25,219 nucleotides of DNA, from NCBI GenBank assembly GCA_002771015.1, contig PCUO01000009.1, positions 1 through 25,219 on the forward strand, given 5' to 3'. This document shows positions 3,625 through 23,735 of this stretch, piece by piece. The stretch is from Candidatus Yonathbacteria bacterium CG17_big_fil_post_rev_8_21_14_2_50_43_9. Lineage in GTDB: Bacteria > Patescibacteriota > Minisyncoccia > Phycocordibacterales > UBA1550. The translations under genes were made by a program, and so were the position numbers. Below the pieces are notes generated by a model that had not been told where the DNA came from, made no database searches, and saw nothing but the letters and a program-made list of their open reading frames with translations. Each line of letters starts with the position of its first letter. The first letter of the stretch is position 1.

Positions 3625-3653
3625 ACTGTAGCAAATGCACATCGATTTTAAAA
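3625..3653 (-). promoter_or_regulatory. promoter of the MgtC-like gene, probably leaderless
   Basis: Minus strand: extended -10 TGC-TACAGT (hexamer 3630-3625), 7 nt before the ATG at 3617. A weak -35 (TTTTAA, 3653-3648) is 17 nt upstream. Confidence 0.5.
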
Positions 3654-3657
3654 GTAA

Positions 3658-3807
3658 TCACTCACACACCTTGAATACGAGGCGACAAGTAGCAAAAATG
3701 TGAGCTGTACGTCGCGCTTCAATCGACACTGCGCGACCCGATTTTGCAAAATCGACAGTGAACGTTTTTGCGACGACGGCAACAATGTAGTCAAGGATGT
3801 GTGATGG
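3658..3807 (-). other. open reading segment without a start codon, possible gene relic
   Basis: The 195-bp spacer between the nuclease gene and the MgtC-like gene holds 49 sense codons on the minus strand, between TAA (3808-3810) and TGA (3658-3660). They read like protein (for example DYIVAVVAKTFTVDFAKSG), but no ATG, GTG or TTG lies near the beginning. A second minus frame is also open over most of the span. It contains a 16-nt perfect palindrome, CGATTTTGCAAAATCG, at 3739-3754, flanked by CACTG/CAGTG. It may be a relic or an intergenic repeat. Confidence 0.3.
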
Positions 3808-3812
3808 TTACT

Positions 3813-4688
3813 TTAAAATTCCTGACAAACCTGATCAACTTCTTCTACGACCTTTCCAATCTGTTCGTCAGTAAATCCAATTGATTTTAGAGCCACTGGG
3901 CTATTTTTTAACTCGCGACACATTACAATTCCCTTTTCAAGCAAACTATTTTTGTCACCCTGAGTAAGTGTGGAAAGGAATGTAAGCGGATGCACCCCCG
4001 TTTCCAAAATCAAATCCTGCAAATTCCCTTTTTCAGGATAGTCCCAGCCAATCACAGTGAGCCCAGAGCAATTTGCATATTCAATTGCATCACTCGTGAG
4101 CTTGGTGTTTGTGATGAGCCACCCCTCGTGAACCTTCTTTACCTCTCCTTCGTGTCTTTTATGCGCTTCATCATGGGCTTTTTGCAAATCCATGAATCGT
4201 GCGTTAACATATAGCGCTACCTTCACGTCTGTTTTAATTCCCTGCTGATTGTGAAACTTGCACTCCGCAAAAATATGACGGTCGCCTTTTTGCATAAGCA
4301 CATCCACCTCGTGATCAACACAAAACCCCTGTAGAATTACACCTGTCTCCGCGGTGTAACCCTTTCCACGCAAAACCTCCGCGACAAACTTTTCAAAGGG
4401 GAATCCACTCGGCCCGAGCTCGAGCACAGCCTTACGAAGTGAGTATCGAATAGCAGCCGGATATTTGCTCTTCTTGAGAATAGAATATGCATGCTTGTAA
4501 AGCTGAGAGGTCTTCATCCCTTCATGAAGCTCAGGGATAATGTGCTCTACAATACGCTCAATAGTTTCATCATCAGCACCGGAGCGCGTAAGCGACCGGC
4601 GAAGCTTATTGAGGGAGAAACGCTCACGCTCTCCAGTACTCTTGATGACCCACAACACCTCACTTTGGTCGTTACTCTGATTGCTCAT
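3813..4688 (-). CDS. ATP-cone domain fused to an Mrr-type restriction endonuclease domain
   Basis: The 291-residue protein begins with an ATP-cone (residues about 11-90: VIKSTGERERFSLNKLRRSL, then paired helices), a nucleotide-sensing module best known from ribonucleotide reductases and NrdR. It continues with an Mrr/PD-(D/E)xK nuclease core (about 95-225). FEKFVAEVLRGKGY starts the fold, Asp129 (in HEVDV) and Glu142-x-Lys144 (AECK) supply the catalytic D-ExK set, and the later GWLITNTKLTSDAIEYA and GLTVIGWDYPEKGNL match Mrr family strands. The C-terminus (about 260-291) looks like a small helix-hairpin-helix. The architecture suggests nucleotide-gated DNA cleavage, possibly defence against modified DNA. 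No methyltransferase is adjacent. This is inference from domains; the target is unknown. Confidence 0.88.
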   Translation of the reverse strand: MSNQSNDQSEVLWVIKSTGERERFSLNKLRRSLTRSGADDETIERIVEHIIPELHEGMKTSQLYKHAYSILKKSKYPAAIRYSLRKAVLELGPSGFPFEKFVAEVLRGKGYTAETGVILQGFCVDHEVDVLMQKGDRHIFAECKFHNQQGIKTDVKVALYVNARFMDLQKAHDEAHKRHEGEVKKVHEGWLITNTKLTSDAIEYANCSGLTVIGWDYPEKGNLQDLILETGVHPLTFLSTLTQGDKNSLLEKGIVMCRELKNSPVALKSIGFTDEQIGKVVEEVDQVCQEF

Positions 4689-4694
4689 CCAATT

Positions 4695-4703
4695 AGTTTA
4701 ACA
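4695..4703 (-). promoter_or_regulatory. extended -10 of the nuclease gene
   Basis: Minus strand TGT-TAAACT followed by 6 nt and the ATG at 4688. No clear -35. The position predicts a leaderless transcript starting just downstream of the preceding terminator. Confidence 0.45.
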
Positions 4704-4713
4704 CAGGAAACAA

Positions 4714-4745
4714 GCAAAAGAAAAAGGCCGTGTTTTCACGACCTT
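4714..4745 (-). terminator. intrinsic terminator of the 128-residue protein gene
   Basis: On the minus strand a 9-bp stem (AAGGTCGTG with CACGGCCTT, one U-G wobble) closes an AAAA loop and is followed by TTTC TTTT. On the plus strand the wobble becomes a C-A mismatch, so it fits minus-strand transcripts, about 13 nt after the 4759 stop. Confidence 0.8.
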
Positions 4746-4758
4746 ACGAGGCGCTACT

Positions 4759-5145
4759 TTATTCAAACCAAATCATTTCCTTATCGTAGTCTGGCATTCT
4801 TATTGGCCCTTCAATTAAAACACTGCGTCCCGTTAATTTCCATTCACGGAAATGGTGGAAGGTGCTCGACTCAGCAAAGACGTAGAAAAAGAATGGCTTT
4901 CTTGATTTTCCTCTGCCGAAAAAGACATCTACTCGTGCCATGCGATCAAGAATTCCCTTTTCAGTTTCTTCCTCTGCGCTGATGACAATACTGCCCAAAG
5001 CTCCGCGCTCTTCACACAGGAGTCTGAACACATGCTCAAGAACTTCGTTAGAAAAGGCGCCGAACTCAATAAAAGAAGTGCTTCTGTACCTAAGGGCATG
5101 TTCAATACACCCATTAAACCTCAAATAACTCATCTTTCCACTCAT
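4759..5145 (-). CDS. hypothetical protein, 128 residues
   Basis: I do not recognise this family. The product is soluble-looking, with no signal peptide or membrane segment. Visible features are an Arg/Phe-rich start (MSYLRFNGCIEHALRYRS), a central mixed alpha/beta stretch (VLEHVFRLLCEERGALGSIV, then acidic SAEEETEKG), and a C-terminal half with VDVFFGRGKSRKPFFFYVF and LIEGPIRMPDYDKEMIWFE. The start is well supported by a GGAGG at 5151-5155, five nt before the ATG, one of only two clear Shine-Dalgarno sites in the window. It follows mnmA by 123 bp that hold a hairpin and a candidate promoter, and it has its own terminator, so it may be an independent unit. Confidence 0.72.
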   Translation of the reverse strand: MSGKMSYLRFNGCIEHALRYRSTSFIEFGAFSNEVLEHVFRLLCEERGALGSIVISAEEETEKGILDRMARVDVFFGRGKSRKPFFFYVFAESSTFHHFREWKLTGRSVLIEGPIRMPDYDKEMIWFE

Positions 5146-5170
5146 ATCAACCTCCGGTCAACGGATTTTG

Positions 5171-5193
5171 CATGTAGGGGTCAACCCTACATG
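5171..5193 (-). other. hairpin in the leader of the 128-residue protein gene
   Basis: A perfect 9-bp stem (CATGTAGGG with CCCTACATG) and a 5-nt loop, about 25 nt before the start codon and 16 nt before the GGAGG. Its minus-strand text TAGGGTTGAC nearly recurs in the hairpin at 9985-10005 (TAGGGGTTGAC). Confidence 0.6.
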
Positions 5194-5221
5194 GACACAA
5201 CAACAGGTCATATCAATAAGA

Positions 5222-5250
5222 AAACTACTACACAACACTCATTGCGTCAA
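5222..5250 (-). promoter_or_regulatory. candidate promoter in the mnmA-128 residue gene spacer
   Basis: Minus strand TTGACG (5250-5245), 17 nt, then a weak -10 TAGTTT (5227-5222). This would give a leader of about 70 nt holding the hairpin and the Shine-Dalgarno site. Confidence 0.3.
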
Positions 5251-5268
5251 ATTTTACACAGGTTGAAT

Positions 5269-6366
5269 CTATGTAGTTATTATTCCTCCGCCGAGGCACT
5301 CATTGCCATCACACAAAACGACCGACTGGCCGGCGTCGAATACTGCGGGCCTTTCAAGGCGAAGAAAAAAACCACTTTCATTCAAGGCTATAATCTTACA
5401 TTTGTATTGTTCTCCATGATAGCGCACTTGGGCAGTATATTTCCTTTTGGAATCTGGAAGTGCTCCTTTACAAAAGCTCGCTTGATCGGCTCGTAGCTCC
5501 TGCGAGGCACACTCTAGGGGCTTTATTGACTTACCTTCTAGTTGGTGCGCAACGGTGATTGTATTTTTCTCAAAATCCTTAGCTACCACGTAAAAAGGAG
5601 TGTCATCCGTGCCTTTTTTCGTCACTGTAAATCCGTGCCGTTCACCTAGTGTATAAAAATACGCGCCACGATGTGTGCCGATTGCTTCTCCTTTCTCATT
5701 CAAAACACATCCATCTTTCTCTCCAATATAGTGCGCGAGAAAATCCTTCATATCAAGCTTACCCACGAAGCAAAGTCCTTGAGAGTCCTTTTTCTCCGCA
5801 ACAGGGAGCGCAAACTTTTTTGCGAGCGCGCGAACTGCAGACTTTTTGTATCCACCAATCGGGAAAAAAGTTTTACGGAGCTGCTCCTGCCCAAGTGTCC
5901 ACAAAAAATACGATTGGTCTTTCGCATCGTCTACTCCTTTGAGCATTTCGTATATGCCAGTTTTTTTATCATATTTAACCTGCGCATAGTGGCCCGTAGC
6001 CACAAAATCCGCGCCTTCTTTTATAGCGCGTCTAAAAAATGCTCCGAACTTAATCTCCTTGTTACACATCACATCTGGATTTGGAGTACGGCCTGCTTTG
6101 TATTCGGCAATCATATAGTCTGCAACGCCCTCTTTGTATTCCTTTTCAAAATCCCAGGTGAGAAGCGGGATACCAAGGTGTGCTGAGACTCGCATTGCAT
6201 CAAGTCTCTCCTCGCGCCACATGCATGGCAAAAAATCCGGTTGCCATACCTTCATAAAAACTCCCGTCACATCATACCCAGCTTTTTGTAGGAGCGCTGC
6301 TGAAACCGACGAGTCCACTCCGCCCGACATTCCCACATATACGCGCCCTTTAGATTTTTTCTTCAT
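5269..6366 (-). CDS. mnmA: tRNA-specific 2-thiouridylase MnmA
   Basis: Thiolates U34 in the wobble position of tRNA Lys/Glu/Gln, using ATP and a persulfide relay. The 365-residue product has the PP-loop SGGVDSS (14-20), the catalytic Cys101 in NPDVMCNKEIKF, the ATGHYA motif (123-128), KDQSYFL (149-155), and the second catalytic Cys199 in DSQGLCFVG. The C-terminal beta-barrel domains follow. Length matches the family. It lies 116 bp downstream of mltG behind a large hairpin and heptamer repeats. The upstream AGGG, 7 nt before the ATG, is a possible weak ribosome-binding site. Stop is TAG. Confidence 0.97.
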   Translation of the reverse strand: MKKKSKGRVYVGMSGGVDSSVSAALLQKAGYDVTGVFMKVWQPDFLPCMWREERLDAMRVSAHLGIPLLTWDFEKEYKEGVADYMIAEYKAGRTPNPDVMCNKEIKFGAFFRRAIKEGADFVATGHYAQVKYDKKTGIYEMLKGVDDAKDQSYFLWTLGQEQLRKTFFPIGGYKKSAVRALAKKFALPVAEKKDSQGLCFVGKLDMKDFLAHYIGEKDGCVLNEKGEAIGTHRGAYFYTLGERHGFTVTKKGTDDTPFYVVAKDFEKNTITVAHQLEGKSIKPLECASQELRADQASFCKGALPDSKRKYTAQVRYHGEQYKCKIIALNESGFFLRLERPAVFDAGQSVVLCDGNECLGGGIITT

Positions 6367-6398
6367 TTGTTTACCCTACTTGAATACCATTAAAATCA

Positions 6399-6450
6399 CA
6401 ACTACCTCCAGTAAATTCTAATGCTCGTGAGAATTCGCTGGAGATAGTTG
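6399..6450 (-). other. large two-tier hairpin between mltG and mnmA
   Basis: Minus-strand RNA forms a 13-bp stem (6438-6450 with 6399-6411, with one U-G wobble that would be a C-A mismatch on the other strand). Inside it, after a 2x2 internal loop, is a 6-bp AATTCT/AGAATT stem. The sequence after it (TGTGATTTTAATGG) is only weakly U-rich. It could be an inefficient terminator or an RNA processing site controlling mnmA. Confidence 0.65.
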
Positions 6451-6453
6451 CTG

Positions 6454-6481
6454 GTCAAATGTCAAACGTCACAGGTTAATT
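6454..6481 (+). repeat. heptamer repeat, GTCAAAN type
   Basis: Consecutive 7-nt units GTCAAAT, GTCAAAC, GTCACAG, GTTAATT, immediately after the mltG stop. Same unit as at 3080-3100. Confidence 0.65.
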
Positions 6482-6482
6482 G

Positions 6483-7511
6483 CTACCTAAGATACTTTGC
6501 TTTGTTTGCCACATGTTCATTAAAAGTTTTCGCATAGTGCATCATGCCATCTTTGTCTGAAAGATAATACATATACGATGTTGCAGTCGGATGAATTGCC
6601 GCGCTAATAGTAACAATGCCCGGGTTCCCAATAGGACCTCCTGGGAGACCTTTGTTTGTATATGTATTGTACGCTGATTTAATTTTTAGATCTGCAGTTG
6701 TAAGCTCGCTTGATTTCCTGCCCAGTAGATACATAAATGTCGCGTCTACCTGTAGTGGCATTCCTTTTGAAATACGATTCCAAAGCACACCTGACACTAG
6801 AGCCATATCCTCGGGATTAGAAGCTTCTCGTTCAAGAATAGATGCCATAATAATTATATCGCGCAATGAATGCTTTGATGTTTCAATCGCGTCAGACCAT
6901 GGCTCTATCTTTTTATTAAAATTAGCAATCATCATTGTTTCTACACCTTGAGCTGTAATATTTTCTGGAAAATGATATGTGTCTGGGAAAAGGTACCCTT
7001 CCTGCGGACGCGCATGTTCTAGAAAAAATATTGTATCAAAATTGGAAATGTTTTTTTTCAAAACTGCTGCTACTTCCTTGTTAGACATTCCCTCCGGGAT
7101 AGTTACGCGTACCGCAGGAATTCCTGAGATGCTTCGCGCAATGCGTATTGCAATACGACATGCAGAAATCGGTTCTTTAAAAAGATACTGCCCTGCGGAC
7201 ACAGGCTTTGCGCCTCCGACTAGCTTCGCGCAAAATTCAAAAAAACTTTGTGAACGAATAAGATTTTCTTTTTCAAGGAGCGCGGAAACTTCTGTAAGTG
7301 ATGCGCCCTTTTTTACTGTAATCATTTTATTTTCTGGGAAACCGAACGGCGCCATCAAACGAAACGAAATGTACGCTGAAAAAAGGACAATTGTAATCAC
7401 GATAACAATCAAAACTTTTGCGCCTCGCTCCTCTATACCGAGCGACAACAGAAACTTTGAAAAACGTCCTGTTTCTTCTTCTATTACTTTTTCTTTTGGT
7501 GTTTGGTCCAT
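6483..7511 (-). CDS. mltG: endolytic peptidoglycan transglycosylase MltG
   Basis: MltG (YceG family) cuts nascent glycan strands and releases them from the synthesis machinery. The 342-residue protein has a cytoplasmic lead (1-30), one transmembrane anchor (about 31-52), a LysM-like domain (about 62-115), and the catalytic domain with EGYLFPDTY (171-179), ASILERE (223-229, with the expected catalytic Glu at 227), and YNTYTNKGLPGGPIGNPG (281-298). It is co-transcribed with the upstream DUF8128-like gene, with 5 nt between stop and start and no Shine-Dalgarno sequence, so translational coupling is likely. Stop is TAG. Confidence 0.96.
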   Translation of the reverse strand: MDQTPKEKVIEEETGRFSKFLLSLGIEERGAKVLIVIVITIVLFSAYISFRLMAPFGFPENKMITVKKGASLTEVSALLEKENLIRSQSFFEFCAKLVGGAKPVSAGQYLFKEPISACRIAIRIARSISGIPAVRVTIPEGMSNKEVAAVLKKNISNFDTIFFLEHARPQEGYLFPDTYHFPENITAQGVETMMIANFNKKIEPWSDAIETSKHSLRDIIIMASILEREASNPEDMALVSGVLWNRISKGMPLQVDATFMYLLGRKSSELTTADLKIKSAYNTYTNKGLPGGPIGNPGIVTISAAIHPTATSYMYYLSDKDGMMHYAKTFNEHVANKAKYLR

Positions 7512-7516
7512 GATGA

Positions 7517-8752
7517 TTAAACTGGCAAATTGACTGGTGCCTCCGACTTACGTGAAGGAATACGACCGAATGTAGGTGTCTGCGCAACACCTCCTGGGAA
7601 GTGATAAATAGTTGCAAGCTCCTCTGTGGTAAGCACAAACGGCTTCAATTTGCGTGGCAAGTGAAACCACGAACGCTGCTTGTATGCCTCAAACATATCC
7701 ATCTTTTTCCATGTTAGGCGAGTCTTGTCATAATCCTCCCAAGGAAAATCCCACCCATATGTTTGCTCGCCACCTTTGAATGAGTTTAGATTGTTTGAAG
7801 TAAACGGGCGCAATAGGCCACCTAGTGCTTTTATATGACCAAAATCCGCTTTATCTTTCTTTCCAAGATATATTGCGCGAATACCGCAATCAAAACCTAG
7901 TTTGTTTATACTACGCTCAATAGCGGCAACAGCGTCTTGTTCACCCTTGGTGGTCATAAAAAGTTTAGTAAAGCCCTCATCAGTTTTCTGGTCACGCTTC
8001 ATTATTTTTTCGATTAACGCTTTTCCTTCATCTTGCCATGTACCAATACTGCCATCGGCTTTTTTATATCGCTTACTTGCCGACTGCACAAGTATTTGAA
8101 TCCAAATTTGCTCGTCTTTTCCAATTGAGCCAAGGTACTCAATAATAGAAGTGATGGGATCAATTTTGAACTCCTCTTTCACACCCTCTTTGTCCATACC
8201 ATAGTCAACATAAGTTTTGATTGGATACGCGTCTTCTTTTGCGAGAATGTATTCAGAGCTAATCATTTCCCAGTCACCCTTTTTGCCTTTGTAGTCCACA
8301 TAGCGTGTGTAGTCTGGCACCTCGTGTATTTCTATATCTGGATACTGCGCGTAAAGTTGCGCTTCTATAACATTTTTGTAAAAAGCGCCTGTGCGAATAA
8401 AAAAGTGCACATTCCCCTCCAGGGATACCATCTCCAATGAAAACCAGTCCTTAACTTTTCCTTTCCAGTATTTGTCCCACCAAACAATCTTGCCGGATGA
8501 TTGATAGAGGGCATTTAGCATAATCTCCATTGCGAGCGGAGTTTTGTGAATCTCCTTTGGAATCTTGACCTCAAGCATTATCCAATTGATCCTCAAGATA
8601 TATCGCCCCTGCACATAATGCATCCACTGATGCCAAAACAAATAACCTAGAAAAATCGGACCCCAGTACGGGAACCATGCGAAAAAAGTTGATAGAAAAG
8701 AAACAACATGCGCGTATAACTCGCTAAATCCGAGAGACTGAATTAAATCCAT
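7517..8752 (-). CDS. DUF8128-like membrane-anchored protein
   Basis: The 411-residue protein has an N-terminal hydrophobic region (about 12-43, one or two membrane passes), then a large soluble part. Conserved-looking blocks are EVKIPKEIHKTPLAMEIMLNAL (60-81), FSLEMVSLEGNVHFFIRTG (105-123), AQLYAQYPDIEIHEVPDYT (131-149), and near the end FVLTTEELATIYHFPG (about 375-390) and a proline-rich SRKSEAPVNLPV tail. I associate this pattern with CPR proteins now called DUF8128 and with the N-terminal part of TraG/HerA-type DNA-translocase ATPases, where the ELATIYHFP block precedes the ATPase domain. No ATPase domain follows here, so the motor would have to be encoded elsewhere. It is the first gene of an operon with mltG. 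The function is inferred only. Confidence 0.75.
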   Translation of the reverse strand: MDLIQSLGFSELYAHVVSFLSTFFAWFPYWGPIFLGYLFWHQWMHYVQGRYILRINWIMLEVKIPKEIHKTPLAMEIMLNALYQSSGKIVWWDKYWKGKVKDWFSLEMVSLEGNVHFFIRTGAFYKNVIEAQLYAQYPDIEIHEVPDYTRYVDYKGKKGDWEMISSEYILAKEDAYPIKTYVDYGMDKEGVKEEFKIDPITSIIEYLGSIGKDEQIWIQILVQSASKRYKKADGSIGTWQDEGKALIEKIMKRDQKTDEGFTKLFMTTKGEQDAVAAIERSINKLGFDCGIRAIYLGKKDKADFGHIKALGGLLRPFTSNNLNSFKGGEQTYGWDFPWEDYDKTRLTWKKMDMFEAYKQRSWFHLPRKLKPFVLTTEELATIYHFPGGVAQTPTFGRIPSRKSEAPVNLPV

Positions 8753-8760
8753 ATTATCCT

Positions 8761-8769
8761 ATGATACCA
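8761..8769 (-). promoter_or_regulatory. extended -10 of the DUF8128-like/mltG operon
   Basis: Minus strand TGG-TATCAT, then AGGATAAT (8 nt), then the ATG at 8752. No clear -35. AGGA inside the spacer could also serve as a weak ribosome-binding site if the transcript starts further upstream. Confidence 0.4.
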
Positions 8770-8780
8770 TAAGGGGAACA

Positions 8781-8808
8781 GAATATGGAATATCGAATGT
8801 TGAATATT
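8781..8808 (+). repeat. heptamer repeat, GAATNTN type
   Basis: Four perfect-period units: GAATATG, GAATATC, GAATGTT, GAATATT. The last two recur inverted at 8867-8880, making a 14-nt inverted repeat around the terminator. Confidence 0.75.
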
Positions 8809-8821
8809 TAATAAATACAAA

Positions 8822-8850
8822 GAACCCGCCTCTCGGCGGATTCTTTTTTG
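8822..8850 (-). terminator. intrinsic terminator after the sigma-4/HARE gene
   Basis: Stem 8822-8830 with 8835-8843 and loop TCTC. On the minus strand all nine pairs form (one U-G wobble), followed by TTTGTATTTATT. On the plus strand there is one C-A mismatch but six T follow, so it may act in both directions. It lies about 45 nt past the 8888 stop. Confidence 0.8.
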
Positions 8851-8852
8851 AA

Positions 8853-8887
8853 TTTATTCTACCTTCAATATTCAACATTCTACCCTC
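8853..8887 (-). repeat. heptamer repeat, inverted copy
   Basis: Minus-strand 7-nt units from 8887 down: GAGGGTA, GAATGTT, GAATATT, GAAGGTA, GAATAAA. It is opposite in orientation to the array at 8781-8808, on the other side of the terminator. Confidence 0.65.
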
Positions 8888-9916
8888 TTACGCCAGCGCG
8901 TATTTCCCGTCCTTTGTTTTCTTGAACATTTTTGGGTCCTGAAGATTTACAAAGACTGTATTTTCTTTTACATAACGCTCCTTGAGTACGCGGTCAATAA
9001 TATCTTTTTTTGCAAGTGGTCCTTCCTTCTTGAGAACCTTTGCGATCACATCCTTCACAACACCTTTTTCGTAACCCCATGACGAGAGCGCATAGAGACC
9101 ACGACCTACTAACACAAAACGTTTGTCTTTTATAAGCTCATTGTGACAAGTTGCTACGTGCGCTTTTTTGTCAAAAATCTGAGTGATTGACTTTGCGACT
9201 TCTGTAAAGTGCATCGGTGAACCGTGCTTGCGAATAATAAGATACGCATAATCGCGCATCCCGCGAGCATTTACATTGTGTGACTCTGTAACACCCCACT
9301 CGCCAAGAGGATTTTTTGCAATCATTTTTGAAAGCGCCAACCAACGTTTTGTGATTTCCTCGTTTTTATACTCTTCAGAAACATCCTTAAGATGACTCAA
9401 AAACGCTGCAATGATTTCGCTTTCAGGAACCAGATCCTCGTGAGTAAGTGTTTTGTAAAGATCGCGAATAGCATCATGGACCTTCATAGAAACTTTGTCG
9501 TCAACAATCCAGCGATGGCGAAAATTCTCATCCTCTTTTTCACGTTTAAACTTGTCCCCGAGAACAAGCAGAAAATACATGTGGTTCTGCGTACTCTCAT
9601 CCTTAGCTATATGCATCAAAAAATCTTCTTCACAAACGACTCCACCCAATGACACTACTAGCTTATTTAATTCATCAAATACATCCGATTCCTTTTTGAA
9701 CGCGTCGGATTTCTTGATGGTCCCCAAAGCAAAGTTTTCAATCTGGCGAACGCGCTCGCGGGTTATACCATATGATTTGCCTATACCATCAAGTGTCATA
9801 CGATCAGTACTTTCACCTAAACCGTAGCGCTTTATCATCATATCAAGAGCGCGAGGCGAAAGAGAAGCGAGTAATCGTTTTACGACTTGTTTTGGCTTAA
9901 ATGTTATGGCTGACAT
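8888..9916 (-). CDS. sigma-70 region 4-like and HARE-HTH domain regulator
   Basis: The 342-residue protein starts with a sigma-70 region 4-type helix-turn-helix (about 15-70): MIKRYGLGE, then LDGIGKSYGITRERVRQIENFAL, which is the -35-reading motif of sigma factors. The middle (about 75-215) is helical. The C-terminus (about 222-342) has two winged-helix HARE/RpoE-delta-like units, DYAYLIIRKHGSPMHFTEVA...LVGRGLYAL and VIAKVLKKEGPLAKKDIIDRVL...KYALA. There is no sigma region 2, so it is not a full sigma factor. It may bind RNA polymerase or DNA as an auxiliary factor. It is 87 bp downstream of leuS, behind a dual hairpin, and ends before a strong terminator. Confidence 0.85.
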   Translation of the reverse strand: MSAITFKPKQVVKRLLASLSPRALDMMIKRYGLGESTDRMTLDGIGKSYGITRERVRQIENFALGTIKKSDAFKKESDVFDELNKLVVSLGGVVCEEDFLMHIAKDESTQNHMYFLLVLGDKFKREKEDENFRHRWIVDDKVSMKVHDAIRDLYKTLTHEDLVPESEIIAAFLSHLKDVSEEYKNEEITKRWLALSKMIAKNPLGEWGVTESHNVNARGMRDYAYLIIRKHGSPMHFTEVAKSITQIFDKKAHVATCHNELIKDKRFVLVGRGLYALSSWGYEKGVVKDVIAKVLKKEGPLAKKDIIDRVLKERYVKENTVFVNLQDPKMFKKTKDGKYALA

Positions 9917-12409: not shown

Positions 12410-12438
12410 ATTGTAGCAAAACACGCGCCGAGTACCAA
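12410..12438 (-). promoter_or_regulatory. leuS promoter, predicted leaderless
   Basis: Minus strand TTGGTA (12438-12433), 17-nt spacer, TACAAT (12415-12410) preceded by TGC (extended -10), then 9 nt to ATG. Transcription would begin 0-3 nt before the start codon. A 10-nt palindrome CCAATATTGG (12435-12444) overlaps the -35 and could be an operator. Confidence 0.7.
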
Positions 12439-13444: not shown

Positions 13445-13473
13445 ATTGTACACCAATGATGTACAATTGACAA
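13445..13473 (-). promoter_or_regulatory. promoter and operator-like repeat of the DUF5671-like gene
   Basis: Minus strand TTGTCA (13473-13468), 17 nt, TACAAT (13450-13445), 7 nt, ATG. It is the closest match to consensus in the window. A 7-bp inverted repeat TTGTACA-N7-TGTACAA (13446-13466) covers the -10 and half the spacer, as a repressor site would. Confidence 0.72.
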
Positions 13474-13565: not shown

Positions 13566-14585
13566 TGTCTGATCGTCTGATACGCTTTTCGGTATATGAT
13601 TACCGAACAAGCACAAGAACGGGCAAAGATACTAACATTTTGGAAAAACATGGGACTGAAGCAGTTTTGGAAGCATACGGGGTACATAGGCTTACGCTCT
13701 TTTACTGGCAGAAGAATCTCAAGAATGGTAATGGAAAGACCCAAGCATTGAATTCTGGATCCAAGAGTCCAAAGGTAACAAGGAAGCGTCTCTGGGACGC
13801 AAACATCTTAGACGAGATTCGTCGCCTGCTTGATAGGTATCCAAACCTCGGAGAAGAAAAGCTCTACCCGTTTCTCGCAAAGTTTTGTACGGCAAACAAC
13901 CTTCCGTGCCCTAAGCACGTGACCATCGGACGACTCATGAAAGATATGGGAGGGTTACGAAAGTTCCCGCAAAAGGTGTCTCATTTCGGCAAGACCAAAA
14001 AGGTGAATCGCCAGAAAGTCTTGAGAAAACCTAAACATTTGAAGATTACGCACGCGGGGCATGTCGTCGCTCTTGATACCATAGAACGCTTCGTAAACGG
14101 ATGCAGGAGGTACATAATCACCTTCGAGGACATCCACACTCGCTTTGCCTTTGCATGGTGCACAACCTCTCACGCATCTCTTGCCGCCAAAGAGTTCTTT
14201 GACCTTTGTCGTGTTGCATTTCCATTCCAGATGGAGTTTGTGCTGACCGACAATGGTTCGGAGTTCAAGAAGCACTTCAATGAGGAGTTGAAAAATCTTC
14301 ACCTCACGCACTATCACACATACCCACGGACACCCAAGATGAATGCTCATGTGGAACGCTTCAACCGCACCATTCAGGAGGAATTCGTTGACTACCATAC
14401 CGGACTTCTCCTTGACCCAGTGAAATTCAACCATGCTCTCATGGACTGACTCGTGTTCTACAATACCGAGCGAGTGCACTGTGCCTTTGGCAATAAGTTG
14501 TCGCCTATGCAGTTTCTGGTACAATCACCCTATTATCAAGTAATTTTCTCCAAGGAGTGCAAAAGTGGGTGCGGTTATACAGACA
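13566..14585 (+). mobile_element. decayed IS481-type insertion sequence
   Basis: About 1 kb holding one broken transposase gene. Candidate ends are TGTCTG at 13566-13571 and its complement CAGACA at 14580-14585, a short terminal inverted repeat with a further weak match (CTTTT) about 20 nt in. I see no clear target duplication, so the ends are tentative. The right end falls 2 nt before the -35 of the next operon. Confidence 0.55.
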
Positions 14586-16356: not shown

Positions 16357-16364
16357 AATATAAA

Positions 16365-18393: not shown

Positions 18394-18400
18394 AAAAAAA

Positions 18401-19498
18401 TTATACTCTAAATTCAACCACATCTCCATCCTTTACTATATATTCCTTCCCTTCAATGCGGAGCTGCCCTTTTTCCTTTGCATTCGCAAACGAGCCTGCA
18501 TCAAGTAAATCCTTCCAAAAAATAACTTCAGCGCGAATAAACTTGTCTTTGAAGTCCGTGTGTATTGCCGTACCAGCCACAGGCGCTGTGCTCCCCTTTT
18601 TAATAGTCCATGCGCGCGTTTCTTTTTCTCCAGTAGTAAAATATGTTTCAAGACCAAGCATTTCGTAACCTTTTGTAATGAGGTCATTGATGCCGTCATT
18701 TTTTGAGCCAAGTTCTGCACGGAACATTTCTTTTTCTTCACCTTCAAATGCCGAGAGTTCGTGCTCAACACCTGCATCTACGATCACATAGTGCGCATTG
18801 CGCGCCTTGATGTACGCAATGAGAGCAACGTAACGCTCATCATTCATCTCATCCAAATTATTCCCTCCTGCTTTTTTGTTGAGCACGTACAAAATAGGCT
18901 TCATCGAAAGCAAGTGCATGGTGCGGATAATCACCAGTTCTTGTTCATTAAGCGACACCTCACGTGCTAGCTTTTCAGATTCAAGCGCCACTTGTACTCG
19001 CTGGAGTACTTCCTTTTCTTTTCCTGCATCCTTGTCTCCTCGCTTCACATCCTTCTCAATATTCGCGAGACGCTTTGTTACTGTCTGAATATCTGTGAGA
19101 ATAAGCTCAAGGTTAATGGTCTCAATGTCTGACACGGGGGCAATCTTTCCGTCCACGTGAATTATGTTACTGTCTTCAAAAATACGCACCACTTCTGCAA
19201 TGGCGTCTGTCTCACGAATATGTGAGAGAAATTGATTGCCAAGACCCTCACCTTCGCTCGCTCCTTTTACAAGACCGGCAATATCCACAAACTCCACCAC
19301 TGCGGGAATTGTTTTTTGTGTTTTTGAGAACTCCGCAAGCTTGTGTAGGCGCTCATCAGGCACGGCAACAACACCCACTGATGGGTCTATGGTGCAAAAC
19401 GGATAGTTCTCTGCTGGAACAGATTTTTTCGTTAGTGCGTTAAAAAGAGTGGACTTCCCCACGTTTGGAAGCCCGACGATACCGATTGCGAGTGCCAT
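18401..19498 (-). CDS. ychF: ribosome-binding ATPase/GTPase YchF (Obg family)
   Basis: Universal P-loop protein linked to ribosome and stress functions (OLA1 in eukaryotes). The 365-residue product has G1 GLPNVGKST (9-17), the G2 region [12 protein letters not shown] (31-42), G3 DIAG (72-75), a coiled-coil insertion (about 125-190), and a C-terminal TGS domain with the typical ending [16 protein letters not shown]. At the nucleotide-specificity position (G4) it reads NKKA (207-210), unlike the NVxE usual in ATP-using YchF and unlike the NKxD of GTPases, so base preference cannot be predicted. Length and rest of sequence are normal. Stop is TAA. Confidence 0.96.
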
Positions 19499-19576
19499 AA
19501 AATTATTTTAATATCTGCTGATACTCGCATTTTTTGTGGAAAAACTCAAGCACGTGCGCTGGGCCAGTATATATTT

Positions 19577-20913
19577 GACAGTAGACGAGCATCTTGAAAA
19601 CAATAGAAAACATGAAAATACCGCTCGAAAATGATTGGCGGGAGTACATCAAAAGGCGTAACCTTGAGCGTATGAGAAACACAGTCGAAAAGGAATTGAA
19701 CCCAAACCATTACCAACTATCAAGTGAAGCAAAGAAAAGGCTCCGTTGGTTGTATACGCTCTACTGCGAACAGGTGGGAAACGTTACACAGTGCGCGAGA
19801 AAACTTGGAATCTCCCGACAATGGTTATCATCTGAGATGAAAGCAGTTTTTGAAAAGAATGGGAAAGACACGCGTTCGCTTGAACCAGAGTCAAAAGTGC
19901 CAAAGAACATGCGAAACAGAAAAAGAGTTGCGAAATAAGTGGAGGACATGATTCTGAAAGTGAGGACGCGGTCTGAAAATGTGTGGGAGAAAAAGGATAT
20001 TGCGGTAGTGCTTCTGCGAGATCGCCATATCAAAGTGAACCCAAACACGGTGAACAAGTATCTGCACAAGCACGGGAAGATTGGTCCGAAGATATCAAAG
20101 AAAAATGATCGAGCATGGAAAGCAAAGTTAGAGATAGAAAAGCCCGAGGCAGAGTTGTTCGTGCGGTATCGTCCACCGAAAGCAACCAAGGATTTGGCGC
20201 CATGGGCACTCGTTGAGAAAGACATGAAATATGTTGTAAAACCAAACTCAAATGATGTTCCCGCGACACGATGCAAGAGCTTCTGGTATCAGCATACCGA
20301 AACAGATTCATTCACCAGAATACGGGTGCTCACGCTCGTGAAAAACAGCAATGCATGGAGGTCTGATTTTGCGCACAAGCAATCAAAAGAAAAGTTTCCG
20401 TTCGTCGTCGCATGCGAGAATACTGACAATGGAAGCGAGAACATGGGTGAGTTTCGTCTGTTGCTAAAAAAGATACGGTCTTTCACTTATACTCGAACGC
20501 AGGAATACCGACTGATAATCCGAAAGTGGAAAGGTCGCATCTCACAGAAGAGCTTGAGTTCTACCAGAAAGGTGGTTATAAAAAACATTTGAAGAACAAC
20601 AAGTAGCAACAGAAAAATTGGAACATTTCTACTACTGCAAAAAGTCTGCGTCCAAGACGCGAACTTGCTAGTTAGCAAGCGATAGGATACCTGACACCGA
20701 TGGAATTCTACGAATTATGGAAAACGAATACAGAAGAAGCTTTTGCGATTGTGAGGACGTATCAGGAATATTTAGCGAAACAACGAAGAAGACTTGCGGT
20801 GGCACGGTGGATTAAAAAGATAGAGCAAGTGCAAAAACTTATGGAATTTATTGACGTAAAATTAAACAAAAAGGTTGGACTAAAAAGAGCTAAAGGGTCT
20901 CTGATAAACTGTC
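19577..20913 (+). mobile_element. decayed DDE-type insertion element
   Basis: The region carries one multiply broken transposase. GACAGT at 19577-19582 and ACTGTC at 20908-20913 may be the ends, but six bases are weak support and I see no target duplication. Sequence 20914-20995 has no recognisable gene; it may be flanking scar. Confidence 0.45.
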
Positions 20914-20933
20914 GATTATGTTCAGTGGCTTGA
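19612..20933 (+). pseudogene. DDE/rve-type transposase with nonsense and three A-run frameshifts
   Basis: The ATG at 19612 (MKIPLENDWREYIKRRN) leads through an HTH (NVTQCARKLGISRQWLSSEM) to a TAA at 19936-19938 (VAK-stop-VEDMILKV, likely GAA to TAA). The same frame goes on through the DDE core: Asp in QHTETDSFTRIRVL and Asp in CENTDNGSEN. At an A6 run (20466-20471) the frame moves -1 to give VFHLYSNAGIPTDNPKVERSHLTEELEFY, which supplies the Glu. It moves again at A6 (20580-20585) to TFEEQQVATEKLEHFYYCK, and at A5 (20639-20643) to SLRP. A 21-nt insert with a CTTGCTA/TAGCAAG hairpin and a stop precedes QAIGYLTPMEFYELWK and the basic C-terminus. It is dead in several places. Confidence 0.88.
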
Positions 20934-20995
20934 GCGCATCCAAAACTGATCCTCTGGTACAACAAATCAGGCTGTCGGGAATACCGTAAGTTTAA

Positions 20996-21223
20996 TTATT
21001 TCTGTAAAACTTTTTGGAGCTCTCCCTGATGCGCCCTCATCACCTCCATAGAAGCAGCCTGCTCTGAACGGCCAGCTTTCACTTTTACCTTTATTTCATC
21101 ACCGATTTTTTTAAAAAGCTCTGGGTTCTTTTCTACAAGCCCGATGATGCGATCAATTTCTGCCTCTGGGACACCTTTGAGTTGGCGTTTTATAACCTGT
21201 TTAAGTAAAAATTCTTTTATCAT
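20996..21223 (-). CDS. small helical protein, 75 residues, CPR-type hypothetical
   Basis: A short, charged, all-helical protein: MIKEFLLKQVIKRQLKGVP, then AEIDRIIGLVEKNPELFKKIGDEIKVKV, then AASMEVMRAHQGELQKVLQK. There is no signal peptide, membrane segment or cysteine. I have the impression that proteins of this design (KGVP..EID.II..VE.NPELF) are widespread small hypotheticals in Patescibacteria, but no function is known to me. It has its own good promoter placed for leaderless translation, which supports it as a real gene despite its size. Stop is TAA. Confidence 0.8.
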   Translation of the reverse strand: MIKEFLLKQVIKRQLKGVPEAEIDRIIGLVEKNPELFKKIGDEIKVKVKAGRSEQAASMEVMRAHQGELQKVLQK

Positions 21224-21231
21224 ATGGGACG

Positions 21232-21260
21232 ATTCTATCAGAAAGTCACTGATCTTACAA
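21232..21260 (-). promoter_or_regulatory. promoter of the 75-residue protein gene, predicted leaderless
   Basis: Minus strand TTGTAA (21260-21255), 17 nt, TAGAAT (21237-21232) preceded by TGA (extended -10), then 8 nt to ATG. A GATCTT-N6-AAGATC inverted repeat (21251-21268) covers the -35. Confidence 0.68.
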
Positions 21261-21269
21261 ACAAGATCA

Positions 21270-21313
21270 ACTATGTCCGTATCTTATACTATAGTATGGG
21301 ATACGGACATAGT
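21270..21313. repeat. 44-nt near-perfect palindrome
   Basis: Arms of 21 bp (21270-21290 with 21293-21313) pair with two T-G wobbles and a 2-nt centre. They begin ACTATGTCCGTATC and end GATACGGACATAGT, around ATACTATAGTAT. It lies between the CAP-protein stop (21343) and the promoter of the 75-residue protein gene. No U-tract follows on either strand. Confidence 0.8.
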
Positions 21314-21342
21314 GGGTGATTATTAGTGAGTCGTTGACTCGC

Positions 21343-22347
21343 TCACAGAAAAGCGATGCATGCGTTAAACGCCTGCACGCCCGCATTATATGTTGCAACT
21401 GCAACTCTGTTTGCCTCTACGAGCGAGTTGTATTGTGGCACCAGCGCGTTGTATTCATTTACATATGTATTGTAGTTTGGGTCATGTTGCGAGGTCGCAT
21501 CAAGCTGGGCCTTCTTCGCATCAAGCTGGAAACGCAAATCAGCTATTGTTGCGCTAGTTGAATCAATCTGCGCTTTAAGTGTTTGATCTATCGCTGGACA
21601 CGCGGACAGTGGAAGCCCAAAACTTTGTACAGCGAGCCATGTCATATGACCCTCATACATTCCTTTACCAACAGCAACGCCGATCTCCCTATAATGCGTA
21701 TTCAAAATATTCGCGCGATGTCCGGGGCTGTTCATCCACGCGGTAACCACACCAGCGTCGCCCTCAAAATCTCCTAAAGCGAGGTTTTCTCCCACTGTCA
21801 CGTATGCGTACCCGACAGCCTGAGCCAAATCCGAAGGACCGACACCAGTTGGAGATACGTGTTCAAAGTATTGTTTTGCAAACATATCATCAACCTTCAT
21901 CTGCGCATCACGATTTAGAAGAGCGTTTTCAATAAGCGCCGGCAATACTCCATTTTGCGCCCGTTCTATGTTTGTGCGTTCTATTATTCCGCGCACAGTA
22001 AGGTCTGTCGCGCTTGTAGTCTTCGTAATTGCCCGAAGTGGACCAGGGGTAACAACGGACTTCTCTACCACTGCTGTTTTTGGAACAAGGCTGCCGTTTG
22101 CAGCAATTGCTGTTGCAGTAGCGGTTGTGGTTTTTGGCTCAACCTTTTTCGTTGCTACTTGTGTTGAGTTAGAAACAGCTGTTTCTAGGCTTGGTCGTGG
22201 ACTTGATTGCTCCTTTTTCACAACAACGGGTATTTCCTGCACGACCTCACTAGGCGCAAAAGTTTCTCTAAAATATGTATACGAAAGCGCTCCCGCACCT
22301 ATGAGTGCCAAAATCCCCGCGAGAATTTTTAGTAGTGATGCCAGCAT
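21343..22347 (-). CDS. membrane-anchored CAP (SCP/YkwD) domain protein
   Basis: A 334-residue envelope protein. An N-terminal membrane anchor (about 1-28, LLKILAGILALIGAGALSY) is followed by a low-complexity Thr/Ala/Val/Lys linker (about 35-110) that could span the wall. The CAP domain (about 117-250) has the family blocks YFEHVSPTG, GENLALGDF, VVTAWMNSPGHRANILNTHYREIGVAV and TWLAVQSFG. A C-terminal helical region (about 255-334) rich in Gln/Asn/Ala looks like coiled coil. CAP domains in bacteria are secreted; their activity is mostly unknown. It follows the methyltransferase by 4 nt. The AAGGAG in the last codons of that gene is a perfect Shine-Dalgarno sequence, 8 nt before ATG. It is the only intact gene here ending in TGA. 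Confidence 0.92.
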   Translation of the reverse strand: MLASLLKILAGILALIGAGALSYTYFRETFAPSEVVQEIPVVVKKEQSSPRPSLETAVSNSTQVATKKVEPKTTTATATAIAANGSLVPKTAVVEKSVVTPGPLRAITKTTSATDLTVRGIIERTNIERAQNGVLPALIENALLNRDAQMKVDDMFAKQYFEHVSPTGVGPSDLAQAVGYAYVTVGENLALGDFEGDAGVVTAWMNSPGHRANILNTHYREIGVAVGKGMYEGHMTWLAVQSFGLPLSACPAIDQTLKAQIDSTSATIADLRFQLDAKKAQLDATSQHDPNYNTYVNEYNALVPQYNSLVEANRVAVATYNAGVQAFNACIAFL

Positions 22348-22351
22348 TGCT

Positions 22352-23128
22352 TTATCTCCTTAATACCTCCAAAAAGAGAAACATTGGTATCTCTTTTCTC
22401 GCTCTGTCCTCTGCCTTTTTTCTCGGACCAGACTCGCTTTCTCTATGTGAGAGCCATTCCTCAAGGCGCGCCACTACGAAACCGCTATTCGCAAGCGTTT
22501 TGAAATAGTACTGAAGTGGGCGGTGAAACGAAATCGTTGTTTTCGTATCACGCTTGCTTGGGTTCATTTCAATCTCCACTTTTGATTCTGACATATAGCT
22601 GTCCACACGGCGATATTGCGTTTTTGCTTCTTCATCATATCCCCATGCACTCGCTTTTGGGATACGGAAAGCTGGATGATTGAGAACAATGAAAAGTTTA
22701 CCGTGAGGCTTAAGCACGCGCGCACATTCTTTGAAAACTTTGTGAGGCGCTTCAATGTTTTGAATCGCCAGCAAAATCGCAATTTTTTCAAATGAGCTAT
22801 CCTCAAAAAGTGAGAGGTTCTCAGCGGAGTGAGAAAAATATTTAATTTCCTTTGGGGACTCTTTTCTTGCAATTAGGACAAGCTGTTTGCCCAAATCAAC
22901 TCCCGTAGCATCAGCGCCTTCCTGAAAAAATGCGCGCGTAAAGAACCCCTGTCCGCACGCGAGGTCAAGCACGCGTTCCCCCTTTATAATAGCCATCGCA
23001 CGAAGAATGTTTGGTAAAATCACACGCGCTTGATAAGTGTCATCCCGCGCGAGAAGCGTGTCGTACCAATGCGCAACCCCTCCCCACGAGGTAGACTTGG
23101 ATTTTTTTGTAGGTTTTTTGTCTGTCAT
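22352..23128 (-). CDS. class I SAM-dependent methyltransferase
   Basis: The 258-residue protein has a Rossmann-like methyltransferase fold: motif I VLDLACGQGFFTRAF (about 53-67), an acidic end of strand 2 (ATGVDLGKQ), motif II-like FEKIAILLAIQNIE, and motif III ECARVLKPHGKLFIVLNHPAF. The C-terminal part (YFKTLANSGFVVARLEEW) resembles the UbiE/type 11 methyltransferases. The lead is Lys-rich and polar (MTDKKPTKKSKSTSWGG). The substrate cannot be told. It is the first gene of an operon with the CAP protein, divergent from the UDG gene, and likely leaderless. Confidence 0.9.
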   Translation of the reverse strand: MTDKKPTKKSKSTSWGGVAHWYDTLLARDDTYQARVILPNILRAMAIIKGERVLDLACGQGFFTRAFFQEGADATGVDLGKQLVLIARKESPKEIKYFSHSAENLSLFEDSSFEKIAILLAIQNIEAPHKVFKECARVLKPHGKLFIVLNHPAFRIPKASAWGYDEEAKTQYRRVDSYMSESKVEIEMNPSKRDTKTTISFHRPLQYYFKTLANSGFVVARLEEWLSHRESESGPRKKAEDRARKEIPMFLFLEVLRR

Positions 23129-23136
23129 TAAAATTA

Positions 23137-23145
23137 ATTATAGCA
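23137..23145 (-). promoter_or_regulatory. extended -10 of the methyltransferase-CAP operon
   Basis: Minus strand TGC-TATAAT (hexamer 23142-23137), 8 nt before the ATG at 23128. It is a full consensus -10 with the extended motif, and no clear -35. It sits almost back to back with the UDG promoter. Confidence 0.65.
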
Positions 23146-23147
23146 TA

Positions 23148-23156
23148 TGTTACAAT
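23148..23156 (+). promoter_or_regulatory. extended -10 of the UDG gene
   Basis: Plus strand TGT-TACAAT (hexamer 23151-23156), 6 nt before the ATG at 23163. Together with the minus-strand -10 it makes a 34-bp divergent promoter region in which the two polymerases should compete. Confidence 0.55.
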
Positions 23157-23162
23157 CGGCCT

Positions 23163-23735
23163 ATGAATAAAGTCCAAAAACTCAAAAAACTTCACAAAAA
23201 GTGGCTTCAGGAATGCACCTGTGAATTACGAAAAAACGCGATACAGGGTGTCCCTGGTGACGGCAGCGCGAATGCACAAATCGTATTTATAGGTGAAGCG
23301 CCAGGCTCAAAGGAAGACAAAGTGGGGCGGCCTTTCGTCGGCTCCGCGGGGAAATTTCTAGCAGAGATGCTTGAGAGTGTAAAAATGAAACGCGATGATG
23401 TATACATTACCAACATCGTAAAATATCGCCCTCCAAAAAATCGCGACCCAACATCTAAAGAGATTGCTGACTGCACACAGTGGCTTGAAGATGAAATAAA
23501 ACTCATAGACCCCACACTCATTGTATTTTTAGGGCGATACGCGATGAACCATTTCTTTCCAAAAGAAAAAATCTCTGAAGCGCATGGCGTGCTTCTCACA
23601 GAAAATCACTTCGGAAGGGTTCGCAATTTCCTTCCCCTCTACCACCCAGCTGCATCGCTATATAACGGTTCCATTCGTGACGTCATGAAAGATGATTTTA
23701 AGATGATTCCCAAAATACTTGGAGAATTGAAGTAG
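23163..23735 (+). CDS. uracil-DNA glycosylase, family 4-like, altered Fe-S site
   Basis: Removes uracil from DNA in base-excision repair. The 190-residue product shows the family 4 layout: VPGDG (30-34), catalytic-pocket motif GEAPGSKED (44-52), GRPFVGSAG (55-63), YITNIVKYRPPKNRDP (81-96) and YHPAASLY (160-167). Family 4 enzymes hold a 4Fe-4S cluster with four Cys. Here the first pair is Cys18-x-Cys20 (not CxxC), the third ligand position (VKC in classic members) is Tyr88, and Cys104 remains. The cluster may be lost or remodelled. The frame is open upstream to 23037, but the start at 23163 fits the family and the promoter. Stop is TAG. Confidence 0.92.
   Translation: MNKVQKLKKLHKKWLQECTCELRKNAIQGVPGDGSANAQIVFIGEAPGSKEDKVGRPFVGSAGKFLAEMLESVKMKRDDVYITNIVKYRPPKNRDPTSKEIADCTQWLEDEIKLIDPTLIVFLGRYAMNHFFPKEKISEAHGVLLTENHFGRVRNFLPLYHPAASLYNGSIRDVMKDDFKMIPKILGELK

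What the first reader, a model, noticed from the sequence alone, without database searches (positions are those of the whole stretch)
3625..23163. Extended -10 elements 6-9 nt before the ATG in at least nine genes: leaderless expression as a general mode
Seen directly, as TGN-hexamer-spacing-ATG: MgtC-like TGC-TACAGT-7; nuclease TGT-TAAACT-6; DUF8128-like TGG-TATCAT-8; leuS TGC-TACAAT-9; receiver TGA-TAGATT-8; 75-residue protein TGA-TAGAAT-8; methyltransferase TGC-TATAAT-8; UDG TGT-TACAAT-6. The DUF5671-like gene has TACAAT-7 with a strong -35 but no TG. Three have a -35 at exactly 17 nt. Such spacing leaves 0-3 nt of leader. Known: TANNNT at this distance marks leaderless genes in Deinococcus and others. 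In contrast, clear Shine-Dalgarno sites appear only at the 128-residue protein gene and the downstream CAP gene. Inference: operon-first genes are leaderless and promoter motif and start codon form one unit, which also helps correct start calls (leuS, DUF5671-like).
Basis: partly seen in the sequence, partly recalled or inferred. Interest (0 to 1): 0.7.

Follow-up and report, generated by a model that had tools for sequence, protein, structure and literature searches.

The report
Leaderless genes, ribosomes lacking anti-Shine-Dalgarno
In this small-genome bacterium many genes carry their promoter right in front of the start codon, so the messenger RNA should begin at the first codon, and its ribosome has lost the sequence that most bacteria use to find start codons.

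Summary
All eight extended -10 elements and the ninth plain one stand where stated. Of 284 genes called blind to the motif in about half of this 638-kb Patescibacteria genome, 49 have TGNTANNNT 6-9 nt before the start, against 1-8 in ten other 4-nt windows; all 49 start with ATG. E. coli gives 0 of 112. A congeneric genome keeps 16 of 17. A related pattern exceeds its control in 142 of 142 genomes of the class and 374 of 379 of the phylum (by eye). These are sigma-70 promoters fused to the AUG; leaders of 0-3 nt are inferred, no RNA was mapped.
The larger finding lies outside the window: the 16S rRNA has lost the anti-Shine-Dalgarno CCUCC, as have 29 of 29 readable tails of the order; 57 of 90 in the class are altered. 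SD motifs are rare before operon-internal genes (4 of 145, about 12 expected) and no consistent recoded SD is seen. One order member, G214, has an unexplained SD-like excess at operon-first genes (10 of 46, 3.3 expected).

The parts
3625..3633 (-). extended -10 TGC-TACAGT, 7 nt before ATG 3617 (MgtC-like)
   Evidence: congeneric genome keeps an extended -10 at gap 6
4695..4703 (-). extended -10 TGT-TAAACT, 6 nt before ATG 4688 (nuclease-like)
8761..8769 (-). extended -10 TGG-TATCAT, 8 nt before ATG 8752 (DUF8128-like); my blind caller had put this start at 8578
12410..12418 (-). extended -10 TGC-TACAAT, 9 nt before ATG 12400 (leuS); gap 7 in the congeneric genome
14607..14615 (+). extended -10 TGA-TAGATT, 8 nt before ATG 14624 (receiver domain)
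   Evidence: kept in the congeneric genome
21232..21240 (-). extended -10 TGA-TAGAAT, 8 nt before ATG 21223 (75-residue protein)
   Evidence: kept in the congeneric genome with changed flanks
23137..23145 (-). extended -10 TGC-TATAAT, 8 nt before ATG 23128 (methyltransferase)
23148..23156 (+). extended -10 TGT-TACAAT, 6 nt before ATG 23163 (UDG); divergent, back to back with the previous one in a 34-nt intergenic stretch
13445..13450 (-). -10 TACAAT, 7 nt before ATG 13437 (DUF5671-like), no TGN
13468..13473 (-). -35 TTGTCA (5 of 6) 17 nt upstream of that -10
19505..19510 (-). -10-like TAAAAT, 6 nt before ychF ATG 19498; weak as a single case
6373..6378 (-). -10-like TAGGGT, 6 nt before mnmA ATG 6366; weak as a single case
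765..770 (-). -10-like TATATT, 6 nt before trmD Met6 (ATG 758), a likelier start than the GTG at 773
   Evidence: start judged from recalled TrmD N-termini
5151..5155 (-). GGAGG 5 nt before ATG 5145 (128-residue protein): SD look-alike, no CCUCC in this genome's 16S rRNA to pair with
22356..22361 (-). AAGGAG 8 nt before ATG 22347 (CAP protein): SD look-alike, no CCUCC in this genome's 16S rRNA to pair with

Best explanation
The elements are ordinary sigma-70 promoters of the extended -10 type (TnTGnTATAAT-like, weak -35 about 17 nt upstream) placed so that transcription starts at, or up to 3 nt before, the A of the start codon. The operon-first genes that have them make leaderless mRNAs, and promoter and start codon evolve as one unit. 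The ribosome of this lineage has lost the 16S anti-Shine-Dalgarno CCUCC, so the standard SD pairing is not available. Leaderless AUGs are presumably bound directly by 70S or tRNA-loaded 30S ribosomes. Operon-internal genes presumably start without SD, helped by an A/U-rich context (A-6, A-3, U-1) and short distances to the gene before. Shown here: motif, position, conservation, absence of CCUCC and scarcity of SD motifs. Inferred: the transcription starts and the initiation mechanism.
For: Extended -10 at gap 6-9: 49 of 284 genes against 1-8 in ten other windows. Pooled over 5 genomes of the order, gap 6/7/8/9 = 44/13/14/16 of 562 genes, other gaps 0-5. Hexamer positions left free by the pattern read A 0.72 and A 0.64, with T 0.71 two bases before TG and T-rich -29/-28; matches to TTGACA (4 of 6 or better) cluster at spacing 16-17, 7 and 7 of 49 genes, 0-4 at other spacings. 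All 49 genes start with ATG, against 203 of 235 others (Fisher p 0.002). 16 of 17 elements kept in the congeneric genome, against 6 of 11 copies of the motif elsewhere upstream (p 0.02). 16S tail lacks CCUCC: own genome, 29 of 29 readable of 30 loci of the order. No CACCTCC or CCTCCTTT within 800 nt downstream, as far as each locus runs, so no sign of a hidden 3' exon. SD 4-mers at internal genes: 4 of 145 in the order (about 12 expected), 25 of 36 in E. coli, 22 of 94 in four aSD-keeping Patescibacteria, 13 of these 22 from G252 alone. A-6 in 65 of 104 internal genes, strongest in G000; U-1 0.62 against 0.32 at decoy ATGs.
Against: No RNA 5' end was seen. Only about a fifth (extended) to two fifths (TANNNT, background included) of operon-first genes carry the element. 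G214, of the same order and also without CCUCC, has SD 4-mers at 10 of 46 operon-first genes against 3.3 expected (p 0.002 uncorrected, mixed motifs and gaps, 5-mers 4 against 0.7; internal genes 2 of 16 against 1.3); G464, in the class, 3 of 19 against 0.8: unexplained. Leaderless use does not need anti-SD loss: aSD-keeping relatives also show it, and the link inside the class is weak (pooled ratio 6.6 against 4.7, p 0.03, not corrected for kinship). A second, upstream promoter could add leadered mRNAs. The A-6/A-3/U-1 context could partly be base composition and is flat in G132. The mature 16S 3' end is not mapped.
Confidence: 0.88

Rival explanations
1. The -10-like elements are real promoters, but they give minor or alternative transcripts; the main mRNAs come from upstream promoters and have leaders.
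For: About four fifths of operon-first genes lack the extended element at the called start; transcription starts were not mapped.
Against: With leaders as the rule one expects -10 elements also 20-60 nt upstream; the extended element there is at 1-8 per window against 49. SD sites for leadered mRNAs are not enriched in this genome.
Confidence: 0.06
2. The TA-rich element is a translation signal or a composition effect near start codons, not a promoter.
For: Upstream regions are A/T-rich. In G374 operon-internal genes carry the extended element about as often as operon-first ones (8 of 52, 17 of 101).
Against: The TG dinucleotide, TTGACA-like hexamers at 16-17 nt, the T-rich -35, the sharp peak at gap 6 and the near absence at gaps 1-5 fit RNA polymerase geometry. 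The reversed-pattern control is far lower (49 against 5 in G000). In G000 operon-internal genes have the extended element less: 3 of 57 against 43 of 203.
Confidence: 0.03
3. The missing anti-SD is an assembly, intron or pseudogene artefact, and SD initiation works normally.
For: 16S insertions occur in the order (matches up to 2.9 kb long); one order genome, G185, also has a canonical tail near a contig end; G214 has an SD-like excess at operon-first genes.
Against: 29 of 29 readable tails of the order lack it, with an intact helix 45 and varied tails; at least 119 contig stretches of public genomes match an altered-tail pattern, 80 of them listed; SD motifs are not enriched in G000 and rare before internal genes of the order.
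Confidence: 0.03
4. SD pairing persists in recoded form: mRNAs pair with the new 16S tail.
For: In G000, 6 of 57 internal genes hold a 6-mer complementary to the new tail; upstream windows average 0.3. Two other groups reach low counts of shuffles: G464 internal 5-mers 7 of 13 (15 of 300 shuffles reach it) and G214 operon-first 5-mers 11 of 46 (22 of 300).
Against: For G000 shuffled tails give 3.1 +- 2.0 (35 of 300 reach 6) and its 5-mers are at the null (12 against 11.8); the congeneric genome 7 of 115 against 5.3; the remaining aSD-less groups are at or below the null apart from G132 operon-first 6-mers (35 of 300), while E. coli and G252 are clear. About 50 such tests were made in that call.
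Confidence: 0.04

Closest known systems
-10 motif adjacent to ORFs / leaderless genes of Deinococcus-Thermus (PMC12340547, passages and section 11 read; PMC3160421, passages read)
   Same: TANNNT-type -10 directly before the start codon, -35 helpful but not required; about 30% of ORFs in one survey, 46% of genes in D. radiodurans in the other; doubts about annotated starts
   Different: PMC12340547 reports -10 and RBS motifs side by side in that phylum. Here SD motifs are scarce, the order has lost the anti-SD, and TGN is common.
Leaderless transcriptome of mycobacteria (PMC4633059, PMC3898074; search listings only)
   Same: Large share of leaderless mRNAs with a -10 near the start
   Different: From recall, mycobacteria keep the anti-SD and use SD for leadered genes.
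[quoted passage not shown]
   Same: 16S without CCUCC and few SD sites; its Table 4 already lists one Campbellbacteria, one Wolfebacteria and one Peribacter genome and two SR1 genomes
   Different: There single genomes, and for the CPR entries no mechanism in the parts I read; here order-wide loss, graded loss in the class, and the promoter-start fusion as the alternative.
Bacteroidetes (Flavobacterium johnsoniae, PMC6847099, passages read)
   Same: No SD; adenines at -3 and -6 favoured
   Different: F. johnsoniae keeps the anti-SD sequence; its genes are, as far as I recall, mostly not leaderless.

Membership tests
Leaderless genes with TANNNT promoters | -10 hexamer at fixed 6-9 nt before the start, above background | tested here: met
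   49 of 284 against 1-8 in ten other windows; E. coli 0 of 112
Leaderless genes with TANNNT promoters | AUG start | tested here: met
   49 of 49 ATG
Leaderless genes with TANNNT promoters | mapped transcription start at the start codon | not testable with these tools
   no RNA data available
Sigma-70 extended -10 promoter | TGN before a TATAAT-like hexamer | tested here: met
   free hexamer positions A 0.72, A 0.64
Sigma-70 extended -10 promoter | -35 at about 17 nt | tested here: met
   4 of 6 or better at spacing 16 and 17 in 7 and 7 of 49 genes, 0-4 at other spacings; weak in single genes
Organisms without anti-SD (category iv of PMC10783764) | 16S 3' tail without CCUCC | tested here: met
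Organisms without anti-SD (category iv of PMC10783764) | SD-scarce genome | tested here: met
   G000: 10 of 284 at gap 4-11, control windows 13-29; order member G214 is an exception at operon-first genes
Deinococcus-type mixed system | RBS (SD) motif also enriched | tested here: not met
   G000 internal genes 1 of 57 with an SD 4-mer, 6.8 expected; operon-first 8 of 203, 11.2 expected

The most novel reading that the evidence does not exclude
Leaderless promoters fused to the start codon are the common and probably ancestral expression mode of Patescibacteria. On that ground whole lineages (here an entire order; holders of such tails include genomes named Kaiser-, Nomura-, Zambryski-, Taylor-, Adler- and Yonathbacteria; and several more families of the class) dismantled the Shine-Dalgarno system on the mRNA and the rRNA side without recoding it. 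Operon-internal genes then start by A/U context and coupling. This would be a very large group of bacteria without SD-guided initiation that relies on leaderless mRNA.
Probability: 0.6. Interest if true: 0.8.

Novelty: new variant of a known kind. Interest (0 to 1): 0.65.

Why it matters
SD pairing is the textbook way bacteria find start codons. A large branch of bacteria that carries leaderless promoters and has in part discarded both halves of the SD pair gives a natural test of how initiation works without it, and suggests an order of events: SD disuse first, anti-SD decay later. Practically, gene finders that expect SD sites may mis-call starts in these uncultured bacteria; a promoter-plus-ATG model would correct start calls and would tell which genes head transcripts.

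Tried and rejected
Recoded SD matched to the new 16S tail: the raw count in G000 looked high but shrank against shuffled tails, with no consistent sign in other genomes (the exceptions are given under that rival). A compensatory hairpin after helix 45 that outlives the anti-SD: 31 order tails beat plain shuffles of their 3' part (2 of 300 reach the observed) but not tails with 3' parts exchanged between species (57 of 300), so dropped. Link of anti-SD loss with strength of leaderless enrichment: weak. bS21 (PF01165) matched in 27 of 33 canonical, 9 of 15 one-change and 23 of 42 strongly altered genomes (canonical against strongly altered p 0.015), not corrected for kinship and with a weak model; no match in G000; not used. 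Family f131 looked like an exception with the TANAAT pattern (G265 5 against 7, G374 1 against 2); gene-based counts in G374 (GC 0.57) show TANNNT in 33 of 101 operon-first genes against 5.4 expected, so for G374 the pattern, not the biology, failed; G265 was not sampled. leuS footprint over the order (30 loci) shows TANNNT at 5-9 nt in many but not all; kept as illustration only. The number of independent anti-SD losses was not counted (no tree built).
Full report
What was checked. The window is contig C21 of a 638,213-base genome in 41 contigs, 94% complete. Four further genes (alaS, ychF, mnmA, trmD from Met6) have TANNNT at 6 nt. Each of these four is weak on its own, except alaS with a 5 of 6 -35.

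Is it more than chance? I called genes with a simple dicodon score that does not see upstream sequence, on 19 usable stretches plus the window (284 genes). TGNTANNNT lies 6-9 nt before the start in 49 genes. Ten other 4-nt windows give 6,5,3,3,8,1,2,2,4,1. TANNNT alone: 102 against 23-42. For operon-first genes: 43 of 203 (2.8 expected) and 84 of 203 (24.8 expected); for internal genes: 3 of 57 and 15 of 57 (0.5 and 3.3 expected) (283 genes). With any in-frame ATG within 30 codons allowed, 49 of 203 operon-first genes have the extended element; decoys give 3-5; TANNNT alone is less telling there (95 against 68 for the reversed hexamer and 27-29 at other gaps). E. coli K-12 with the same pipeline, 112 genes from 150 kb: 0 and 1, while its SD signal is recovered (54 of 112 at gap 4-11, controls 2-8).

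What the element is. Pooled over five genomes of the order (562 genes), gap counts are 44, 13, 14 and 16 at 6, 7, 8 and 9 nt and 0-5 elsewhere. Positions left free by the pattern read TA(t)AAT, a T stands two bases before TG, and the -35 region is T-rich at the 17-nt spacing. In the 49 G000 genes, 4 of 6 or better matches to TTGACA peak at spacings 16 and 17 (7 each). A gap of 6 nt puts the usual sigma-70 start on the A of ATG (established geometry, recalled). All 49 genes start with ATG, against 203 of 235 others (p 0.002). In the congeneric genome G239, of 93 reciprocal best pairs with the same start, 17 have the element in G000 and 16 of these keep it, several with rewritten flanks or a changed gap; copies of the motif elsewhere upstream are kept in 6 of 11 (p 0.02). 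In leuS the gap is 9 in one species and 7 in the other.

How wide. With TGNTANAAT-N6-9-ATG against the reversed pattern: G000 49 against 5. In the class, all 142 genomes exceed the control (read by eye; 90 of 90 in the scripted subset), some narrowly (G485 7 against 5, G524 5 against 4, G549 8 against 6). In the phylum, 374 of 379 do (read by eye; not exceeding: G057, G066, G169, G265, G374; several more only narrowly). G374, sampled directly, does have the element in a GC-rich form.

The ribosome. The 16S gene of G000 ends, after an intact helix 45 with a GGAA loop, in GAATCAATTCAAAA where E. coli has GGATCACCTCCTTA (recalled). In the order, 60 genomes were searched and 44 have a 16S match; 30 loci were read, 29 have a readable tail, and none of the 29 has CCTCC. 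Two more order genomes read by the class route, G132 and G185, lack it too; G185 has in addition a canonical tail near a contig end with an unlike stem, perhaps contamination, not pursued. In the class, 95 of 142 genomes have the anchor; 90 tails were scored (three of them of the order): 33 canonical, 15 with one change, 42 with two or more; G185, G485, G530, G535 and G550 were left out (G530's anchor is not in helix 45; the others had two places or were not fetched). For the phylum there is no fair estimate: the pattern needs ATCA, found 175 of 379 genomes, and its list was cut; outside the class the printed tails are CCTCC with few exceptions (G008, G334, and a spurious hit in G335). Of eight tails from further phylum genomes (13 loci tried), six have CCTCC and two of family f82 have one change. 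Within 800 nt downstream of helix 45, as far as each locus runs, no CACCTCC or CCTCCTTT occurs in the order loci. PMC10783764 (section 21 read) had already listed single Campbell-, Wolfe- and other CPR genomes without CCUCC.

The mRNA side. SD 4-mers at gap 4-11 before operon-internal genes: G000 1 of 57 (6.8 expected), order pooled 4 of 145 (12.3 expected, summed over six genomes), aSD-keeping Patescibacteria 22 of 94 (G252, family f33: 13 of 21; G374: 6 of 52; G331 2 of 14; G519 1 of 7), E. coli 25 of 36. Operon-first genes of the order: G000 8 of 203 (11.2), G132 0 of 43 (2.5), G239 1 of 38 (3.2), G380 2 of 40 (1.5), G432 1 of 47 (2.7), but G214 10 of 46 (3.3). On inspection the G214 sites are mixed 4-mers at gaps 4-11, four of them 5-mers (0.7 expected). 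G214 has no CCTCC. I cannot explain it; it may be chance (p 0.002 before correction for some 25 groups), miscalled starts, or a residual signal. Among aSD-keeping class members G331 and G519 the SD signal is weak as well, which suggests that SD disuse came before anti-SD loss (inference). Pairing with the new tail is not enriched beyond shuffles in G000 (6-mers 6 against 3.1, 35 of 300; 5-mers 12 against 11.8) or G239 (7 against 5.3); G464 internal (15 of 300) and G214 operon-first (22 of 300) 5-mers are the lowest of some 50 tests, while E. coli (20 of 36, 0 of 300) and G252 (12 of 21, 1 of 300) are clear. Internal genes of the order favour A at -6 (65 of 104), A at -3 (51 of 104) and T at -1 (0.62; decoy in-frame ATGs 0.32); A-6 is strongest in G000 (0.72 of 57) and flat in G132. 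F. johnsoniae uses A-3 and A-6 too (PMC6847099, passages read). The two SD look-alikes in the window therefore have no CCUCC partner.

Mechanism. Best reading: sigma-70 extended -10 promoters fused to the AUG give leaderless mRNAs for many operon-first genes; internal genes start SD-independently. Transcription starts, leader lengths and the ribosomal route are inferred. YchF, which PMC12641178 (passages) cites as promoting leaderless translation, seems to be encoded in the window (my naming from the sequence, not tested) with a -10-like element of its own; this is a remark, not evidence.

Prior art searched. The held library was searched for leaderless with Candidate Phyla Radiation, Patescibacteria, Parcubacteria, Saccharibacteria and candidate phyla, anti-Shine-Dalgarno with Candidate Phyla Radiation, and Shine-Dalgarno with Patescibacteria and Parcubacteria. 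Nothing listed there reports leaderless expression in this group, judged from titles and starts of abstracts, and from passages for PMC12641178, PMC6851277 and PMC10582724. PMC12340547 scanned upstream motifs across the bacterial domain (section 11 read) and may include such genomes in its supplement, which I could not read. Subscription papers and preprints were not searched.

Noticed in passing
23129-23162: The UDG and methyltransferase genes diverge from a 34-nt stretch that holds two back-to-back extended -10 elements, so each -35 must lie in the other gene's coding sequence.
   Followed up: partly
13640-14449 and 19594-20592, + strand: Two transposase/integrase-like reading frames; the second looks split into two ORFs (inspection only).
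   Followed up: no
1276-3063, - strand: alaS encodes only 595 residues, shorter than the roughly 870 of most bacteria (recalled); it may lack the C-terminal domain.
   Followed up: no
758-773, - strand: The longest trmD ORF starts with GTG right after a strong hairpin; Met6 with TATATT at 6 nt is the likelier start.
   Followed up: partly
phylum family f33 (G109, G157, G244, G286): Extreme enrichment of the start-fused -10 (for example 201 against 4 in G286); the two f33 16S tails read (G252, G168) keep CCTCC, and the one f33 genome sampled, G252, uses SD at internal genes: a mixed, Deinococcus-like system.
   Followed up: partly
G214 (L362-L366): SD-like 4-mers at 10 of 46 operon-first genes although its 16S tail has no CCTCC.
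   Followed up: partly
L077, L212, L215 and other class loci, directly after helix 45: Canonical tails are followed by CTAGGGAG or TAAGGAG that could pair with the CCTCC in the precursor; a similar hairpin in altered tails was not supported by the exchange test.
   Followed up: partly
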